Assembly (NCBI RefSeq): GCF_024347315.1
Contig: NZ_AP025461.1
Coordinates: forward strand, 1,054,001 to 1,118,000
DNA: 64,000 bases
Source: Vibrio atlanticus
GTDB lineage: Bacteria; Pseudomonadota; Gammaproteobacteria; Enterobacterales; Vibrionaceae
Reading direction: 5' to 3'
The notes under the pieces are model-generated. The model made no database searches. It was not told where the DNA came from and saw only the letters and a list, made by a program, of their open reading frames with translations. Positions 55,561-64,000 of the stretch are shown here, in pieces. How positions within the stretch are numbered: the stretch's first letter is position 1; each line of letters opens with the position of its first letter. A program made the position numbers and the translations under genes.

Positions 55561-56481
55561 ATGGAGAATGAAGTGAAGCAAGAACCTTTGAATCTTGTTC
55601 CTGTTAAAATTCAGGAAGTTGATAATATTAGTATGGGTGTCCTACCTAACGGTGAGACGTTTCTTTCACTTCAAGGTTTAGCCAAATTTTGTGGTTTGGC
55701 GCCTAGTTCAGTGATTCAATTGGCACAAGATTGGTCCGCGGGTGAAGCTCAGGGGAAAATCCGAGGTCAACAACTAACAGAATTAATAAAGGAATGGACA
55801 GAGTCGGACTTTGTTCCAGACAGTCTTTATGTAGAGATAGACAGTAAGAACTCGATTACTGGCGTGATTCACGCTGTGCCCGAACAAATTGTAATGGCTA
55901 TTACAGATTATTACGCGCACTATGCTCAGGTAATTAAACCAGAAGCTGTTCGCAACTATCGTAGAGCTGCCAAGCTAGGTTTGCGTAAGTATATATATGA
56001 TCGTCTTGATTACAATGAACAGGATCTAATATCTGAAAGCTGGAAACTATTCCAAGAGCGAGTCCTAAATAATGAATGCCCTAAAGGGTATTTCACGATG
56101 TTTGATGAAGCTACTACGATTATTGCTTCTCTTATTCGCAATAATATTATTGTTGACGACTCTATAATGCCGGACGGTAGTTTGGGCATCCATTGGGCTA
56201 AGTTTTGGAAAAATCAAAGCTTAGAGGTTGTTCATGGTGAGCGAATCAAAATCGCTCATAAATATCCAGATTCATATCGACAACTAGATCCCGAGATCAA
56301 TGCATACCCTGTGGGCGCATTATCAGAGTTTAGAGTGTGGTTTCAAGAGACCTATCTGCCGGAGAAATATCCAGCATACATTAAACGTAAAATTAAAGAT
56401 GGGACAGTAGCCTTAGAAGCTGTTCCCGTACTTCTATCAGCGGTTATGCCTCCAGAAGTGTCAGAAAGACTATTAAACTAA
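55561..56481 (+). CDS. Unrecognised phage-type protein, possible KilA-N/BstA-like
   Basis: This encodes 306 residues (or 302 from the GTG at 55573, which has GGAG 6 bp upstream). The N-terminal part (MGVLPNGETFLSLQGLAKFCGLAPSSVIQLAQDW) looks like a phage antirepressor or KilA-N-type DNA-binding module. The C-terminal part is distinctive: CPKGYFTMFDEATT, LGIHWAKFW, YPVGALSEFRVWFQETYLPEKYPAYIKRK. I do not recognise a named family. Next to a reverse transcriptase and phage remnants, an antiphage or phage-regulatory role is plausible but unproven. A terminator follows. Confidence 0.6.
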   Translation: MENEVKQEPLNLVPVKIQEVDNISMGVLPNGETFLSLQGLAKFCGLAPSSVIQLAQDWSAGEAQGKIRGQQLTELIKEWTESDFVPDSLYVEIDSKNSITGVIHAVPEQIVMAITDYYAHYAQVIKPEAVRNYRRAAKLGLRKYIYDRLDYNEQDLISESWKLFQERVLNNECPKGYFTMFDEATTIIASLIRNNIIVDDSIMPDGSLGIHWAKFWKNQSLEVVHGERIKIAHKYPDSYRQLDPEINAYPVGALSEFRVWFQETYLPEKYPAYIKRKIKDGTVALEAVPVLLSAVMPPEVSERLLN

Positions 56482-56545: not shown

Positions 56546-56618
56546 TAGTAACACTGATTTGAGTTAGGTGGGAGCCTTATTCATATATTATCTTGACGTT
56601 TCTTTCCCAGGAGAATTT

Positions 56619-57287
56619 ATGGAAAATTTGAATAAATTAGAGTCAATTGTCGATTTGTATTTTAGTAAAAAGTACAAATTATTTAAACCTCAAGATGCAA
56701 ATGGAGATACCTTGGGGAAATGCTTTGAGTTTGAGAGTCGTGCTGATTTCTTGGATGCATACCTGCAATACTACCGTAATTTACCGAATTTGGACGCTGC
56801 TATTGCGAATGGGTGTAGTGCAAAGTTTAAAATCCTATATGAGTCACAAGAATATGAGCTTAAGCATATTCACCAAGAAGAGTTTAAAGACGACAAGGGT
56901 AATCTTCGAGGCGTAAATAATACTATATTATCAAGCATGGCAGTTAAGCTTAGATCAAAGTCCTCTCAGTTAAAAAAGGCTAAATCATTTGATGATGTCT
57001 ACAGTATTGTGAAAGCGACTAAAGTTTCTGGTTTCGGTGAGTTATCAATTTATGATGCCGCGGTAAGAATATCAGCATATTTAGGCTTTAAACCGACGAA
57101 GGTATTTCTACATGCTGGCACTCGAATAGGGGCTAGCTATTTGGAGGATAAAGAACTATTGCCGGAAGACTCTTCTCTTGAAGAAACTCTAGAGATCTTT
57201 GATTTCCCAAAACCAATTCAAAAGTTAAATGCTATACAATTAGAGAACTTCTTGTGTTCTTTTAAGAGTGACTTAAAAAAAATATAG
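56619..57287 (+). CDS. Unrecognised accessory protein with HhH-like motif
   Basis: This encodes 222 residues from the ATG at 56619, which has AGGAG 5 bp upstream. There is no signal or membrane segment. The C-terminal half holds VSGFGELSIYDAAVRISAYLGFKPTKVFLHAGTRIGA, which looks like a helix-hairpin-helix unit as in DNA glycosylases. It is AT-rich compared with the backbone. It sits directly before the RT noncoding RNA; whether it belongs to that system is unknown. Confidence 0.6.
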   Translation: MENLNKLESIVDLYFSKKYKLFKPQDANGDTLGKCFEFESRADFLDAYLQYYRNLPNLDAAIANGCSAKFKILYESQEYELKHIHQEEFKDDKGNLRGVNNTILSSMAVKLRSKSSQLKKAKSFDDVYSIVKATKVSGFGELSIYDAAVRISAYLGFKPTKVFLHAGTRIGASYLEDKELLPEDSSLEETLEIFDFPKPIQKLNAIQLENFLCSFKSDLKKI

Positions 57288-57397: not shown

Positions 57398-57427
57398 TTG
57401 ATTACATTGCATTTTGTTTCTTATGAT
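57398..57427 (+). promoter_or_regulatory. Promoter of the RT-associated noncoding RNA
   Basis: A TTGATT -35 and TATGAT -10 are 18 bp apart. The predicted transcript starts near 57434, just before the first hairpin of the noncoding RNA. Confidence 0.65.
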
Positions 57428-57484
57428 CGTATCATTGACTGGCTTTTGGTAGGGGCTTATTAGTTCCTGATCAAAAGGAACTTA

Positions 57485-57604
57485 ACAGGTTGTCAACTCC
57501 CAGCGGTATGCCAATAAGGCAAGCTGAGCAGATAGACAGCAGGAACTGGAATAGGGTCTTCATAGATACCTCCACGGTTATAGTTACAGTATAATCCATT
57601 TCTA
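57485..57604 (-). other. neo: Cryptic neo repeat: 120-nt unit with a stop-free antisense frame
   Basis: On the complement, the frame whose codons fall on 57486, 57489 and so on has no stop in 40 codons, and joining 57485 to 57604 gives a Leu codon (TTA), so concatemers stay open indefinitely. The ATG at 57563 has GGAGG 5 nt upstream; the product begins MKTLFQFLLSICSACLIG, runs through a more polar stretch and then repeats every 40 residues. The hydrophobic helix-like half alternates with a Thr/Val-rich half (TVTITVEV). In plain genomic DNA the frame is not an expressed gene; it would exist only after rolling-circle reverse transcription. Confidence 0.85.
57485..57604 (-). promoter_or_regulatory. 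Split promoter that becomes functional only at the repeat junction
   Basis: TTGACA (complement of 57491-57496) lies near one end of the unit and TATACT (complement of 57588-57593) near the other. In genomic order they are about 90 bp apart and in the wrong order. When 57485 is joined to 57604 they are separated by 6 + 11 = 17 bp, the optimal sigma-70 spacing, and point into the neo frame. Confidence 0.85.
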
Positions 57605-57726
57605 ACATGACGCGGCTAGAGTCTTCGGATTCGTGGATGGTTGTTTTAACAACTTGGTTAAGCCGAGGTAAGGCGTAAGGAATTGCCGCAGTTCTAAGTC
57701 TGCCTCGGTTTTGCTAGAGTACTCTA

Positions 57727-59010
57727 ATGTCATCAAATATTCCTCTCTGGTATCGAAATCGCGGGTATCTTCATTTCGATTTGCCGATCAGCTTAAAAAA
57801 AGCACGCAATCTAGTCACTAACTCAGATCTTGTAGCAAAACATGCGTTCTTTCCCTTAATCAATTATGCGGTTGAATCTAAGAAAATAAGTAAAGATAAG
57901 AAAACGCGAAAAATCGATATTGCAGTCAAAGAGCGTCCAATTGCTTATTCAGCACATGTAGATAGCCATATTTATGCTTACTATACCGAAATTTTGAGTA
58001 GAAAGTACGAATCTAGATTAAAGCAACTAGGGCTATCAGAGTGTATTCTTGCTTTCCGTGGGTTGGGGAAAAGTAATATCGATTTTGCCTTTGAAGCGTT
58101 CGAGCAAATTAAGGATATGGGGGAGTGTAGTGCAGTAGCTTTAGATTTCTCTAAATTCTTTGACACGCTAGATCACTCAATTTTGAAACAAAGTTGGGCT
58201 GGTTTACTAAGCAAAGACAAACTCCCACCTGACCATTTCAATGTGTTTAAATCTATCACTAAGTTTGCCCAAGTAAATAAAGTTGATTTGTATAATGAGT
58301 TTGGCATTTCGCCTAATAACCCCAAAAATGGACGAAATCGAATTTGTACTGCTAAGGAGTTTCGAGATATCGTTCGGACGAAGAAGCTTATAAAGCCAAA
58401 CAAAAACTCATTTGGTATACCTCAAGGTTCTCCAATAAGCGCACTTTTATCAAACATTTATATGCTTGAGTTTGATGCAGAAATGAAAAGGTACGTAGAT
58501 ATTCATGGTGGAAAATATTATCGCTACTGTGATGATATGTTGTTTATAGTACCGACACCTCTCAAAGTTAGAGTAGCGGGCTATGCTCAAGATCGAATAA
58601 AGAGCTTAAAAGTTACAATTAATCCAAAAAAAACCGAATTAAGAACATTCAAATATAAAAATGGCTCTTTAACTTCGGAGCAAATGCTTCAATATTTAGG
58701 TTTCATGTTTGATGGTGAAAATGTTTATATTCGGTCATCTTCACTGGCGAGGTATTCGGAAAAAATGAAACGTGGGATTCGTTTAGCTAAAAGAACAATG
58801 GACAAGTATAATTCGGTTCGGATAACTAAAGGTTTGCCTGAGAAAAAACTTTATAAGCGTAAATTGTATAGTCGCTATACTCACTTAGGTGGGAGGAATT
58901 TCGTTACCTATGGATTGAGGGCCGCAAAAACTATGCAAAGTAAAACTATCAAACGCCAACTTAAGCCTCTCTGGCGTAGATTTCATGAAGAAATAGAGAG
59001 AGAAATATAA
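57727..59010 (+). CDS. drt2: DRT2-type antiphage reverse transcriptase
   Basis: This encodes 427 residues. RT motifs in order: first catalytic Asp in AVALDFSKFFDTLDH (Asp140), FGIPQGSPISALLSNIYMLEFD (residues 229-250), and YRYCDDMLFIV with the YxDD active site (267-270). The N-terminus (PLWYRNRGYLHFD) and ERPIAYSAHVDSHIYAYY block, and a basic thumb-like C-terminus (KRKLYSRYTHLGGRNFVTYGLR), are features I associate with the UG2/DRT2 group. No protease, integrase or maturase domain is present. The upstream noncoding RNA with a cryptic neo repeat supports DRT2 strongly. The start is the ATG at 57727; the ribosome site is weak, inside a 12-bp palindrome (57715-57726). The stop lies a few bases before a truncated transposase. 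Confidence 0.9.
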   Translation: MSSNIPLWYRNRGYLHFDLPISLKKARNLVTNSDLVAKHAFFPLINYAVESKKISKDKKTRKIDIAVKERPIAYSAHVDSHIYAYYTEILSRKYESRLKQLGLSECILAFRGLGKSNIDFAFEAFEQIKDMGECSAVALDFSKFFDTLDHSILKQSWAGLLSKDKLPPDHFNVFKSITKFAQVNKVDLYNEFGISPNNPKNGRNRICTAKEFRDIVRTKKLIKPNKNSFGIPQGSPISALLSNIYMLEFDAEMKRYVDIHGGKYYRYCDDMLFIVPTPLKVRVAGYAQDRIKSLKVTINPKKTELRTFKYKNGSLTSEQMLQYLGFMFDGENVYIRSSSLARYSEKMKRGIRLAKRTMDKYNSVRITKGLPEKKLYKRKLYSRYTHLGGRNFVTYGLRAAKTMQSKTIKRQLKPLWRRFHEEIEREI

Positions 59011-59011
59011 T

Positions 59012-59557
59012 AGGTGCTCACGCGTGGTCAGCATGTAATCAAACGCGGATTCTGTCTCACTGAATCTTAGGTTCATCAAGCGGCCAGTCGCATCGTCAAT
59101 GAACACCAATAGGCAGCATTTGTCGCTGCGGCCTTCAAACCAGTCATGATGGGATCCGTCAATTTGGATAAGTTCACCCAAGCAATCACGACGGTAACGA
59201 GGCTGATAGATCCGAGGTTTTCGTTTCGCATGTGGAAGCCACAGTCCGTCGGCGATCATCCATTGACGCAGTGTTTCTTTAGAGACTGATAGATTGTGCA
59301 GTTCAGTCAGTTTTTCCAGAGCGAACGTTGGTGAGAAGTCAGAATAATGCTCACGAACAAGTTTCAGTTTTTCAATTCTGAAATGTTCTGAGTAGCGTCG
59401 ATTACTTGGGCGTCCACGCGAGACTTTGCGCGCCAAGAGAGACAAGTTGGTTCACCAAACGCCGGATATGACGCGCAGATAGATTCAAAATGACAGCAGC
59501 GTCAACTTGGCATAGTCGTTTTTCACGTACATCAGTCAGAACCTTGAATCTAAGCAT
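59012..59557 (-). pseudogene. Truncated and frameshifted ISNCY-type transposase
   Basis: The frame starts with ATG at 59557 (MLRFKVLTDVREKRLCQVDA), a helix-turn-helix region that runs to a TAA at 59402 after LGAQSLA. The continuation SRGRPSNRRYSEHFRIEKLKLVREHY lies in another frame, so a small indel has shifted it. It includes the catalytic-domain start ELIQIDGSHHDWFEGRSDKCCLLVFIDDATGR and stops matching after SETESAFDYMLTT at about 59012, where the RT gene begins. The C-terminal half is missing. The family is judged from these motifs. Confidence 0.8.
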
Positions 59558-59680: not shown

Positions 59681-59747
59681 AGTGCATATCTTATCATTAC
59701 AGTGCAACCTCTTGTATTTAGAGGTTTTATCGGTGAAGTATCGCGAA

Positions 59748-60098
59748 ATGAGTAAGAATTACATTTTTCGAGAGTTAGAGTGCCAAATGACCAAGGAAGA
59801 GGTCGCGGAACTGTGTTTTAAAACTGTGAGGACTGTCACGGGTTGGGATGAAGGAAAACCGATACCACCTGAATGTAAAAGGCTTATGCGTATGGCTAAA
59901 GGCCGGGAACTAAGCGTAAGTAATGATTGGGAACAGTTCAAAATGTTATACGACAGTTTGGAACTGCCGACAGGACAAGTCGTGAGGCCACAACAAATAC
60001 TAGCAGGGATTGCGTTATTGGGGATTCAGTCAGAGTTAGAGATAAAGACTTCAACCCACTTATTAAAGATCGCTCGTTCTATAGCAAAAATTAGATAA
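59748..60098 (+). CDS. Phage regulatory protein, DUF3653-like
   Basis: This encodes 116 residues from the ATG at 59748 (MSKNYIFRELECQMTKEEVA). A helix-turn-helix-like region (EEVAELCFKTVRTVTGWDEGKPIPPECKRLMR) is followed by LELPTGQVVRPQQILAGIALL and a helical tail. I recall this pattern as DUF3653, common in Vibrio filamentous phages. It probably regulates the prophage. It converges with the NACHT gene. Confidence 0.7.
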   Translation: MSKNYIFRELECQMTKEEVAELCFKTVRTVTGWDEGKPIPPECKRLMRMAKGRELSVSNDWEQFKMLYDSLELPTGQVVRPQQILAGIALLGIQSELEIKTSTHLLKIARSIAKIR

Positions 60099-60163: not shown

Positions 60164-62038
60164 TTACATATCAAAGTCTATATCTAATATTCGTGAGACT
60201 TGTTCGCTCTTATCGTTAATAGGTTTGTATATTTCTTCATAATAATTAGTAATTTGCTCTTTCACTATACCTTTATAAAAATCTAGCGATCCTTGAAGGT
60301 TCAAGTAACTATACATATCTATTGTAATAAACTCATCATCACGACTATTAGTTGAAACCAAAAGGATTTCTTCAGCAGACAGTTCGCGTAATTTAAGTGG
60401 GTCTACTCTTTGAGATTTCTCACCAATTTCAAATAAATGTCTAGATATAATGCCTTCAAAATCAGAACTTGATCTTCTAGTTCCGTTCTTTAAAAAACTA
60501 AGAGTTGATAGGACATTATTTTGCTCTAATATATGTTGGCTTTCACAAGAGAAACTATTAAGTTCAAAATTCGCTTGAAATACTATTTTTTTTGATTTCA
60601 GTATATCGACAACCATTGAATCTAATACTGTATCTTTACTTTCTGTATTGAGGTGATTCAATTTTTTATGTTTAAAGTATTCAAGTACAAGTAAAGTATT
60701 GAAGTCATCAGTGTCGATATATTTAAGGAATAGCATAACATTATCAAACTTATCTTCTTTGTCTATTACACTTGAAAGTTTAGAGTAAAACTTTTCCTTA
60801 TGTTTATGTGGCAAAGAAGCAATAAATTTAGCAGCATGGAACTCTTGTATGGACTTATGTAAGAAAACATACTTGTCGAAACCATCTTTTTGTAAAAGGC
60901 ATGTTATATTCAAGAGGTCTTGCTGAATTGATTCTGTATGTTCTAATGGCAATTGGGTAAGGTTAATTGCCGACTGTAGGAAGTGATGAAGAGACTCTTC
61001 GGAAAACTCTAAAGCATTTTTGTTTATACTATCGAAACACAGCGCGTTAAATACTTTCCCTGCGTCTATAGCACCAATTTGAGAATACTTCTCTCTATTA
61101 AAGTTCTTGATTTTATCATGCCTACTAAATAAAGTTATAAATAGCTTGTCATAAAAATCAACTACACTTTCTGGAACTATGTCTAAATAGGGGTAGCAGA
61201 CATATAGCAAATTTACCAAAATAGGGCTTATTAATGTTTCTTGTAAAGGAATATTTCCTTTTATTAATGATGGTAATTCTGCGATATCTTTGTTTTTGTC
61301 GAGCTTAGAAATTATAGAAATAATATCATCTAAATCTAGTTTTTTAACCTTTAAATTTGTAATGTCAACTTCACCACAAATTTCAGTGCCAGGTCTAGTT
61401 GTTACTATAACATCACAATCATATCTGGTTTTTAATTGTGTTATTTCAAGTAGCATTCTTAAGCGATTTTTTGATGAAACTTCATCATAACCATCTAGCA
61501 TCATTACTATTTTATTTGATTGTAATAATAACTCTACATCTCCATCATTGAAGGCTAGCCCTATATCCCGTAATTGTTGTTTGAAATAATCGAGAATAGT
61601 ATCTTCACCAACACGTCTTAGTTCGATCATAAAAGGAAAACGTTCACCTTTCTTAAGCTCTTCAAGGAACAATTTTCTTAGAATTGTGCTTTTTCCTTGA
61701 CCTGCAATACCTATGATGTTGATAACTTGACGATAACTAAGTGTAAAATTGTCATCTACAGTTAATTCATCTAAATTTGATTGAACCACTAGTTTCAATG
61801 GAGAGTATATTTCATCTAAGTAGATATCTGACTCTGCACTATGAAGCGTACGCATTTTCATAAAACGGCTGACATATTTTTCAGCATATACCTGAGCAGG
61901 GTAGTCTTCTGACAACTGTCTTAGCAGTCCTTTTCCTGACTCAGTATCTTGTGTCCATGGTTTATCAAGGATTTTTTTTGCCACATGCGTCACTATCTGT
62001 TTTAACGCAACCATCGTTAGAGTAGTAGCTGGTTCCAT
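60164..62038 (-). CDS. NACHT-domain NTPase, likely antiphage protein
   Basis: This encodes 624 residues from the ATG at 62038 (AAGG upstream); an in-frame ATG at 62086 would add 16. After an N-terminal helical region comes Walker A GIAGQGKST (110-118), a Walker B of NACHT type (IVMMLDGYDEV, about 177-187) and sensor region VIVTTRPGTE. The C-terminal half is helical with no leucine-rich repeats, as in short bacterial NACHT (bNACHT) defence proteins. It sits as cargo in the filamentous prophage and is much more AT-rich than the backbone. Confidence 0.85.
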   Translation of the reverse strand: MEPATTLTMVALKQIVTHVAKKILDKPWTQDTESGKGLLRQLSEDYPAQVYAEKYVSRFMKMRTLHSAESDIYLDEIYSPLKLVVQSNLDELTVDDNFTLSYRQVINIIGIAGQGKSTILRKLFLEELKKGERFPFMIELRRVGEDTILDYFKQQLRDIGLAFNDGDVELLLQSNKIVMMLDGYDEVSSKNRLRMLLEITQLKTRYDCDVIVTTRPGTEICGEVDITNLKVKKLDLDDIISIISKLDKNKDIAELPSLIKGNIPLQETLISPILVNLLYVCYPYLDIVPESVVDFYDKLFITLFSRHDKIKNFNREKYSQIGAIDAGKVFNALCFDSINKNALEFSEESLHHFLQSAINLTQLPLEHTESIQQDLLNITCLLQKDGFDKYVFLHKSIQEFHAAKFIASLPHKHKEKFYSKLSSVIDKEDKFDNVMLFLKYIDTDDFNTLLVLEYFKHKKLNHLNTESKDTVLDSMVVDILKSKKIVFQANFELNSFSCESQHILEQNNVLSTLSFLKNGTRRSSSDFEGIISRHLFEIGEKSQRVDPLKLRELSAEEILLVSTNSRDDEFITIDMYSYLNLQGSLDFYKGIVKEQITNYYEEIYKPINDKSEQVSRILDIDFDM

Positions 62039-62181
62039 CGTGTTTAACCTTGTATTTGATGATTTTAGTAGTTTGTCACATACCATCCAGATATAACAAG
62101 ACGTTTTGCAATGTCGTTGAGTAATGCGATATGAAGATCAAAAGCTTAGTTAGTCAAACGTTTATGGTTAGGTCGAATTTA

Positions 62182-63119: not shown

Positions 63120-64000
63120 CTAAAATAATTTAACATCAGCTCGTTTTAATTCGGGCTCATCTGAAAGTACATCATGAGGCTTACACGTTATAAATTTGGT
63201 TAACTGGCCTCTGTTGAGTTTCAGTAGGCAATCGTCAATAACATCGTAGGTCACATCGTAAGCCCTTAGATAATTCTGATTAAGGCTATAAACCCCATCG
63301 GACGCGACTATCTCAATACTGATATGACGTTCAATTTTCTTTGGCTTGATAGCGAAATTAACACCCGTTACAAATGCCTTTTGGATACCGTCAAACGGTA
63401 AGATATCCGCTATAGAAATACTCGAAACATCATCATTGTTATCAGCTTGATTGCTATTCCCACCATCAGATACACCGCTAGCACCTTGACCGCTTTCTTG
63501 AGCTTTTGAGCTGTCTTTCCCAGTAGGGGAATCTTGATATTGTGGCGTTTCCGCTTCCTGAACTTCCTCAGTAGAATCAAAAACGCGATTGGATATTTCA
63601 TTGGCCATGTACCCCAAACAACTAATAAAAAGTAAAAACACTGCAATCACTTTAGGACTGCGATAAAGCGTATTCATAGCTCCGGCTTGCTTGGCTATGC
63701 CTGTTCCCGTTGACTTATAAAGTAGAAAAGCATCCAACGGTATTTTTTGAGTAGTGGTGTTAACGTCTTTGGATTTTGGAATCACTGGAGTCGATACCGA
63801 TTTGTCATGCTTCCATATTAACGGTTTGCGTTTAGTCCAAAAAAATTGGTCACGTCCCTTGTGATAAAAGTTCTGCTCACCACATGCTTTGATGCCCGTA
63901 TCAATCTGTTTCCAGTCAGGCGAAAGCAATTCAATATCCCAGTTATATTTCCTATGACGCATGAATCCCTCATTGAAAGTATGAGGATAGATAATGCGCC
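63120..64000 (-). CDS. zot: Zonular occludens toxin (Zot) family phage assembly ATPase, C-terminal part
   Basis: The frame is open to the right edge, so the N-terminal P-loop domain lies outside. What is seen starts ...YPHTFNEGF and continues with RHRKYNWDIELLSPDWKQID, the end of the Zot ATPase domain. One membrane helix follows (VIAVFLLFISCLGYM), then a periplasmic Ser/Gln/Asp-rich linker and a C-terminal domain with two Cys. Zot/pI proteins drive extrusion of filamentous phages through the inner membrane. It marks the element as an inovirus. Confidence 0.85.
   Translation of the reverse strand, partial: RIIYPHTFNEGFMRHRKYNWDIELLSPDWKQIDTGIKACGEQNFYHKGRDQFFWTKRKPLIWKHDKSVSTPVIPKSKDVNTTTQKIPLDAFLLYKSTGTGIAKQAGAMNTLYRSPKVIAVFLLFISCLGYMANEISNRVFDSTEEVQEAETPQYQDSPTGKDSSKAQESGQGASGVSDGGNSNQADNNDDVSSISIADILPFDGIQKAFVTGVNFAIKPKKIERHISIEIVASDGVYSLNQNYLRAYDVTYDVIDDCLLKLNRGQLTKFITCKPHDVLSDEPELKRADVKLF

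What the first reader, a model, noticed from the sequence alone, without database searches (positions are those of the whole stretch)
57485..57604. Hidden neo gene: a 120-nt stop-free antisense frame that is endless when concatenated
The complement of the presumed template in the RT noncoding RNA has one frame without any stop over 40 codons, and the end-to-end joint adds TTA (Leu), so tandem copies encode an unlimited protein. The unit is exactly 120 nt, divisible by three. From the ATG at 57563 the product starts MKTLFQFLLSICSACLIG and repeats every 40 residues. This is the scheme described for Klebsiella DRT2, in a Vibrio locus with a different repeat sequence. No ordinary annotation would show this gene.
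Basis: partly seen in the sequence, partly recalled or inferred. Interest (0 to 1): 0.97.

Follow-up and report, generated by a model that had tools for sequence, protein, structure and literature searches.

The report
Hidden repeat gene of Vibrio DRT2
A stretch of noncoding RNA beside an antiviral reverse transcriptase in a Vibrio looks like the template for an endless toxic gene that only comes into being when the stretch is copied into head-to-tail DNA; this is a clear new example of a defence trick first described in Klebsiella in 2024.

Summary
57485-57604 is the template of a DRT2 noncoding RNA. Beside it lie an Rfam RT-12 scaffold starting at the second TAACA and a full-length Drt2 reverse transcriptase (57727-59010). 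The endless frame alone is weak evidence: about 14% of shuffles have one. Tandem copies create a TTGACA-17-TATACT promoter across the joint and place GGAGGT four bases before ATG 57563, in the endless frame. None of 20,000 shuffles has all three features, and a blind scan of 18,252 120-mer circles of the window finds only this locus.

Template units from 27 DRT2 loci (25 by scripted anchors, 2 by hand) all have lengths divisible by three (111-132 nt) and are endless in the same frame; the RT-12 matches beside them have free lengths. In three clusters, substitutions avoid stops and keep hydropathy in that frame only, without a synonymous excess. L026 (RT 44%) does not fit, and other divergent loci are unresolved.

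Mechanism and broad conservation are published (Wilkinson 2024; Tang 2024): a new member of a known kind. Possibly new: divergent relatives seem to replace ACA by other terminal repeats while keeping promoter spacing and frame.

The parts
57407..57435 (+). Predicted promoter of the noncoding RNA: TTGCAT (57407-57412), 17-bp spacer, TATCAT (57430-57435)
   Evidence: Read by eye; the five close relatives show TTG(C/T)AT, 17 bp and a TA-type hexamer at the same place, also by eye. The scanner did not list it and chose 57398-57427, at chance level
57442..57720 (+). DRT2 noncoding RNA, about 279 nt (ends inferred from promoter and scaffold)
   Evidence: the published Klebsiella RNA is 280-281 nt
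57443..57477 (+). 5' handle hairpin
   Evidence: 13 pairs, 4 with changes on both sides in 7 sequences, 100% of cells paired
57485..57604 (+). Template / repeat unit, 120 nt, from ACA-1 to the base before ACA-2
57485..57604 (-). Proto-neo: 40-codon stop-free frame that becomes an endless gene when concatenated; start ATG at 57563-57561
57568..57573 (-). Shine-Dalgarno GGAGGT, 4 nt before the neo ATG
57588..57593 (-). -10 hexamer TATACT of the junction promoter
57491..57496 (-). -35 hexamer TTGACA of the junction promoter; 17 bp from the -10 only in tandem copies
57598..57602 (+). Predicted primer-binding site ATTTC (primer GAAAT), by position from the Klebsiella structure
   Evidence: Inferred from the position of the primer-binding site given in PMC12039810; not tested
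57603..57717 (+). 3' scaffold, Rfam RF03016 RT-12, beginning with TAACA (ACA-2 at 57605-57607)
   Evidence: 71.7 bits, E 3.9e-10
57727..59010 (+). Drt2 reverse transcriptase, 427 aa, YCDD present

Best explanation
This is a DRT2 antiphage system. The reverse transcriptase binds the roughly 280-nt RNA, primes from the RNA's own 3' end on the site before ACA-2, copies the 120-nt template to ACA-1, re-anneals the cDNA end (a copy of ACA-1) on ACA-2 and copies again, giving tandem cDNA. On phage infection the cDNA becomes double-stranded. The joint then brings TTGACA and TATACT together as a sigma-70 promoter, and RNA polymerase and ribosomes make an endless hydrophobic, probably helical protein (Neo) that stops the cell's growth. 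Shown here by sequence: RT, RNA scaffold, template limits, joint promoter, Shine-Dalgarno and start, endless frame, and conservation of length modulo three, frame and hydropathy. Taken from the Klebsiella work and not shown here: priming, jumping, second strand, phage trigger, toxicity.
For: RT is Drt2 by two curated libraries and matches solved Drt2 chains over residues 7-423 (E 1.3e-155 for 9lje, 1.7e-155 for 9c0i). RT-12 starts at the second TAACA. Promoter, SD with start and endless frame together: 0 of 20,000 shuffles and a single place in the window. Units: 25 of 27 loci divisible by three and endless in frame 2 by scripted anchors; final set 27 of 27 with L008 and L016 anchored by hand and L026 left out; all 27 have a -35/-10 pair of at least 10/12 exactly 17 bp apart at the same place. 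RT-12 match lengths of 25 of these loci are spread 5/11/9 over the three remainders. Parsimony on the RT tree needs 7 changes of unit length (six lengths need at least 5 on any tree), all by multiples of three. L029 has a 3-nt insertion in the template and a 1-nt insertion in the scaffold. In three clusters of six loci, 84 changes outside motifs: 0 stops (3.6 expected, P 0.02) and mean hydropathy step 1.94 against 2.64 (P 0.002), in the neo frame only. AlphaFold2 of one unit: helix 2-31, mean pLDDT 76.
Against: No excess of synonymous changes (22 against 21.7 expected outside motifs; 4 of 18 in the window's own clade), so conservation of the amino-acid sequence itself is not shown. The -10 is TATACT here and TATGCT in the five nearest relatives (10/12 with the -35), short of the TATAAT consensus. 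For L008 the best-scoring promoter in the scan had a 16-bp spacer. L026 (RT 44%) gives 158 nt by the RT-12 anchor and 145 nt by promoter spacing, neither a multiple of three. No cDNA, RNA or peptide data for this locus were available.
Confidence: 0.94

Rival explanations
1. The RT makes concatemeric cDNA from this template, but the product acts as DNA or RNA; the endless frame is a by-product of base composition and motifs.
For: An endless frame occurs in 14.7% of shuffles; no synonymous excess; Wilkinson et al. also attribute most conserved Neo residues to nucleotide motifs.
Against: Length divisible by three in all 27 units of the final set, in 11 clusters, while RT-12 match length is free; SD and start stand in that same frame in the window; stops avoided and hydropathy kept in this frame only, in three clusters; a promoter across the joint in all 27.
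Confidence: 0.04
2. The system is decayed here (promoter drift in the template, insertion-sequence remnant against the RT end) and no longer works.
For: An ISNCY transposase fragment abuts the RT's 3' end (58885-59445).
Against: RT is 427 aa and aligns to residue 423 of the solved chain, YCDD present; scaffold at 71.7 bits; template signals present.
Confidence: 0.02
3. Chance: an unrelated intergenic stretch with an open antisense frame.
For: The frame alone is not rare.
Against: All features together 0 of 20,000 shuffles and one place in 64 kb; Rfam, PADLOC and NCBIfam matches.
Confidence: 0.003

Closest known systems
Klebsiella pneumoniae DRT2 (KpnDRT2; Wilkinson et al. 2024, PMC12039810; Tang et al. 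2024 preprint, PMC11100668)
   Same: Drt2 RT, about 280-nt RNA with 5' handle and 3' scaffold, 120-nt template between two ACA motifs, TTGACA-17-TATAAT-like joint promoter, SD and start, endless 40-codon hydrophobic frame
   Different: Different template and Neo sequence; -10 is TATACT instead of TATAAT; no experiment on this locus. RT is diverged by the alignment printed (9lje), identity not computed; that these solved chains include the Klebsiella protein is my recall
The published homologue sets (42 close homologues in Wilkinson; a larger tree with 5 homologues tested in Tang)
   Same: All 42 Wilkinson homologues are stop-free with unit lengths divisible by three (117, 120, 111, 129 named); Tang reports broad conservation and that Neo was harder to call in divergent clades
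   Different: The papers' supplements could not be read here, so whether this Vibrio clade was among them is unknown. Unit lengths 123 and 132 seen here are not among those named in the passage I saw
Rfam RF03016 RT-12 RNA
   Same: 3' scaffold of the RNA
   Different: In the window the match covers only the scaffold from the second TAACA on; it holds neither template nor neo

Membership tests
DRT2 (neo-forming) | Drt2-family reverse transcriptase | tested here: met
   PADLOC Drt2 E 1.4e-209; NCBIfam NF041746 601 bits, cut-off 390
DRT2 (neo-forming) | Structured noncoding RNA directly upstream | tested here: met
   RT-12 at 57603-57717; 5' hairpin with changes on both sides of 4 pairs
DRT2 (neo-forming) | Template bracketed by ACA-1 and ACA-2 | tested here: met
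   ACA at 57485 and 57605
DRT2 (neo-forming) | Unit length divisible by three with one endless frame | tested here: met
   120 nt, one of three reverse-complement frames; relatives 25 of 27 by scripted anchors
DRT2 (neo-forming) | Sigma-70 promoter formed only across the joint | tested here: met
   TTGACA-17-TATACT across the joint
DRT2 (neo-forming) | Ribosome-binding site and start downstream of the -10, in the endless frame | tested here: met
   GGAGGT, 4 nt, ATG
DRT2 (neo-forming) | Concatemeric cDNA, double-stranded on phage infection | not testable with these tools
   needs cDNA sequencing
DRT2 (neo-forming) | Neo translated and growth-arresting | not testable with these tools
   needs peptides and growth assays

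The most novel reading that the evidence does not exclude
The conserved core of the neo scheme is the promoter spacing across the joint plus an endless hydrophobic frame, while the terminal repeat used for the jump is free as long as its two copies can pair. In these data ACA/ACA becomes ACA/AUA in six loci of a 111-nt clade (L017-L021, L023), AUA/AUA in L031 and ACA/GCA in L041, all pairable with at most one wobble. In divergent loci CGTT/CGTT (L034, RT 35%, RT-13 RNA, 129 nt), TATGT/TATGT (L027, 138 nt) and perhaps TTGA/TTGA (L026, 144 nt, 16-bp spacer) give endless frames with TTGACA/TATAAT-like joint promoters. These last three were picked among several candidate repeats after the fact. 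The neo mechanism would then reach beyond the ACA-type, RT-12-bearing clade.
Probability: 0.4. Interest if true: 0.5.

Novelty: new member of a known kind. Interest (0 to 1): 0.36.

Why it matters
It shows that a gene invisible to ordinary ORF annotation can be called from raw sequence by several signals together, and that a blind scan for them finds only this locus in a 64-kb window. For DRT2 itself it adds a clade of units (Vibrio, Zobellella, a Marinobacterium genome), an internal control (template length held to multiples of three, scaffold length free), and evidence that selection keeps hydropathy and the absence of stops rather than an exact sequence.

Tried and rejected
Endless frame as sole evidence: rejected, 14.7% of shuffles have one, and so do 786 of 1,597 window 120-mers (40-base steps) taken as circles in the reverse complement. 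Synonymous-excess test of neo: negative in the window's clade and in three clusters pooled. The null ignored fixed motifs; one search repeats it outside motifs, but there the Shine-Dalgarno stretch was left out in two of the three clusters only (in the 111-nt cluster my script did not find it). Relatedness of sequences was not corrected for. Nearest plasmid DNA by megablast: no match. Viral contigs with the window protein: 11 stretches, none a relative; an exact scaffold pattern: 0. Phage records: 3 relatives at 31-33% identity, not fetched. A dif-like pattern in the window: 0 matches at up to 3 mismatches (motif recalled). RT-13 family in 195 genomes of the order of G1322: 1 hit, G1322 itself. 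Loci L009-L011 (Bacteroidota, recalled): no convincing unit with a sigma-70 or Bacteroidota-type promoter (motif recalled).

In one search, 19 of 21 loci fitted; L008 (weak RT-12 hit; 134 and 128 nt) and L026 (158 nt) did not. L008 was re-anchored by hand on L015 (129 nt) and L016 added by hand (no RT-12 hit). L031's TGACA was coded in by name, while TGACA candidates of 119 nt in L017, L018, L020, L021 and L023 were not used; L022 had a second candidate of 121 nt without ACA-1, which was dropped. In one search, 6 of 6 fitted.

Full report
What is there. The RT at 57727-59010 (427 aa) is Drt2 in PADLOC and NCBIfam and matches solved Drt2 chains over residues 7-423. Rfam RT-12 begins at 57603, on the second TAACA. 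The RNA, about 57442-57720, has a 5' handle hairpin in which 4 of 13 pairs change on both sides among 7 sequences. The consensus structure has 5 pairs with changes on both sides against 1.5 in shuffles (3 of 500 as high) and at most 1 when slid; it was derived from the same alignment, which favours it.

The observation. The frame alone is no proof: 14.7% of dinucleotide shuffles have an endless reverse-complement frame. The proof is the order of signals in tandem copies: TTGACA, 17 bp with the joint inside, TATACT, then GGAGGT, 4 nt, ATG, all serving the one endless frame. None of 20,000 shuffles has a promoter of 11/12 or better anywhere in the circle, an in-frame start with SD and an endless frame together; of 18,252 circles of window DNA only the two that start at 57478 and 57485 do.

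Relatives. RT relatives came from genome contigs (9 loci), 329 genomes of the family (11 hits including the window's own), 369 of the class (2 including the own), 394 of the order (6 including the own), 398 of the phylum (3 including the own), plasmids (21 records, 3 fetched), E. coli genomes (3 of 5,426; 2 fetched) and viral contigs (161 stretches, 80 kept, 7 of them DRT2-like at 49-59% identity). Of 35 distinct DRT2-like loci, 27 gave a template unit that I use. The anchors know nothing of the frame: six bases before the TGTC(A/C) motif for ACA-1 (TGACA in L031) and two bases into the RT-12 match for ACA-2. By these, 19 of 21 and 6 of 6 are multiples of three and endless in the same frame. 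L008 needed re-anchoring, L016 was anchored by hand, and L026 stays a misfit and is outside the 27. Lengths are 111, 117, 120, 123, 129 and 132. The RT-12 matches in 25 of these loci fall 5/11/9 over the remainders. Parsimony on the RT tree needs 7 changes of unit length; six lengths need at least 5 on any tree. If each were free, all being multiples of three has a chance of about 1 in 2,000 for seven, 1 in 240 for five (my arithmetic). L029 carries 3 extra template bases and 1 extra scaffold base against the window's clade.

Selection. In the window's own clade (6 loci) 18 changes give 4 synonymous and 14 not, no excess (5.6 expected). In three clusters of six loci pooled, outside motifs, 84 changes: synonymous 22 against 21.7 expected; stops 0 against 3.6 (P 0.02); mean hydropathy step 1.94 against 2.64 (P 0.002). 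Frames 0 and 1 show neither effect. Relatedness was not corrected for, and the SD stretch was excluded in two of the three clusters only. Neo of the window has a mean hydropathy of 1.09 against 0.00 for random fillings with fixed motifs (P 0.004). One unit is predicted as a helix (2-31), mean pLDDT 76, pTM 0.39, in line with the helices reported by Tang. A single unit says nothing of the repeated fold.

Mechanism and what is known. Wilkinson et al. (PMC12039810; abstract, passages, sections 6 and 23 and part 1 of section 9 seen) and Tang et al. (PMC11100668; passages and section 10 seen) show concatemeric cDNA, the joint promoter, the growth-arresting endless Neo, and conservation among homologues; self-priming from the RNA's 3' end is Wilkinson's. 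Each sequence-level feature of theirs that I tested is met here (membership table). Nothing biochemical is shown for this locus. Two paper searches listed no title on a Vibrio DRT2; of the three papers I opened only Tang's, where Vibrio occurs once, in a reference; the other two were seen as listings. Supplements could not be read.

What may be new. ACA-2 reads AUA in six loci of the 111-nt clade (L017-L021, L023) and in L031, where ACA-1 reads AUA too; L041 has GCA. All can pair with the cDNA copy of ACA-1 with at most one wobble. L034 (RT 35%, RT-13 RNA) has a 129-nt unit when cut by hand at the promoter spacing, an endless frame, a TTGACA-17-TATAAT joint, GGAGGT before ATG, and CGTT at both ends of an equally long reading; other repeats there give 117 and 141 nt, also endless. 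L027 (TATGT, 138 nt) and L026 (TTGA, 144 nt with a 16-bp spacer) can be read likewise, picked among 3 and 13 candidates. By the spacing rule L026 is 145 nt and speaks against.

Noticed in passing
L034 (G1322), upstream of the RT: Divergent DRT2-like RT (35% identity) with an RT-13 RNA instead of RT-12 shows a 129-nt unit, endless frame, TTGACA-17-TATAAT joint promoter and GGAGGT before ATG, with CGTT rather than ACA at both ends.
   Followed up: partly
L017-L021, L023, L031, L041 template ends: ACA-2 is AUA or GCA, pairable with the copy of ACA-1; L031 has AUA at both ends.
   Followed up: partly
L026 (N. vulgaris plasmid pDVUL01): Drt2 whose template by promoter spacing is 145 nt, not a multiple of three; a TTGA/TTGA reading gives 144 nt with a 16-bp spacer.
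   Followed up: partly
window 55561-56481 +: BstA-like protein (PADLOC E 6.6e-97), a phage-defence family, about 1 kb upstream of the RNA.
   Followed up: no
window 60164-62086 -: NACHT protein with a SNaCT1 C-terminal domain, so the DRT2 locus sits among defence-like genes.
   Followed up: no
window 59682-60098 + and 63120-63962 -: Match below cut-off to the VC1465-family Xer recombination activation factor (41.7 bits, cut-off 70) and a Zot-domain protein, as in filamentous-phage-type elements (recalled); no dif-like site found with my pattern.
   Followed up: partly
window 58885-59445 -: ISNCY-type transposase fragment abutting the 3' end of the RT.
   Followed up: no
window 56568-57287 +: 239-aa ORF just upstream of the RNA with no match in PADLOC, Pfam or NCBIfam.
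   Followed up: no
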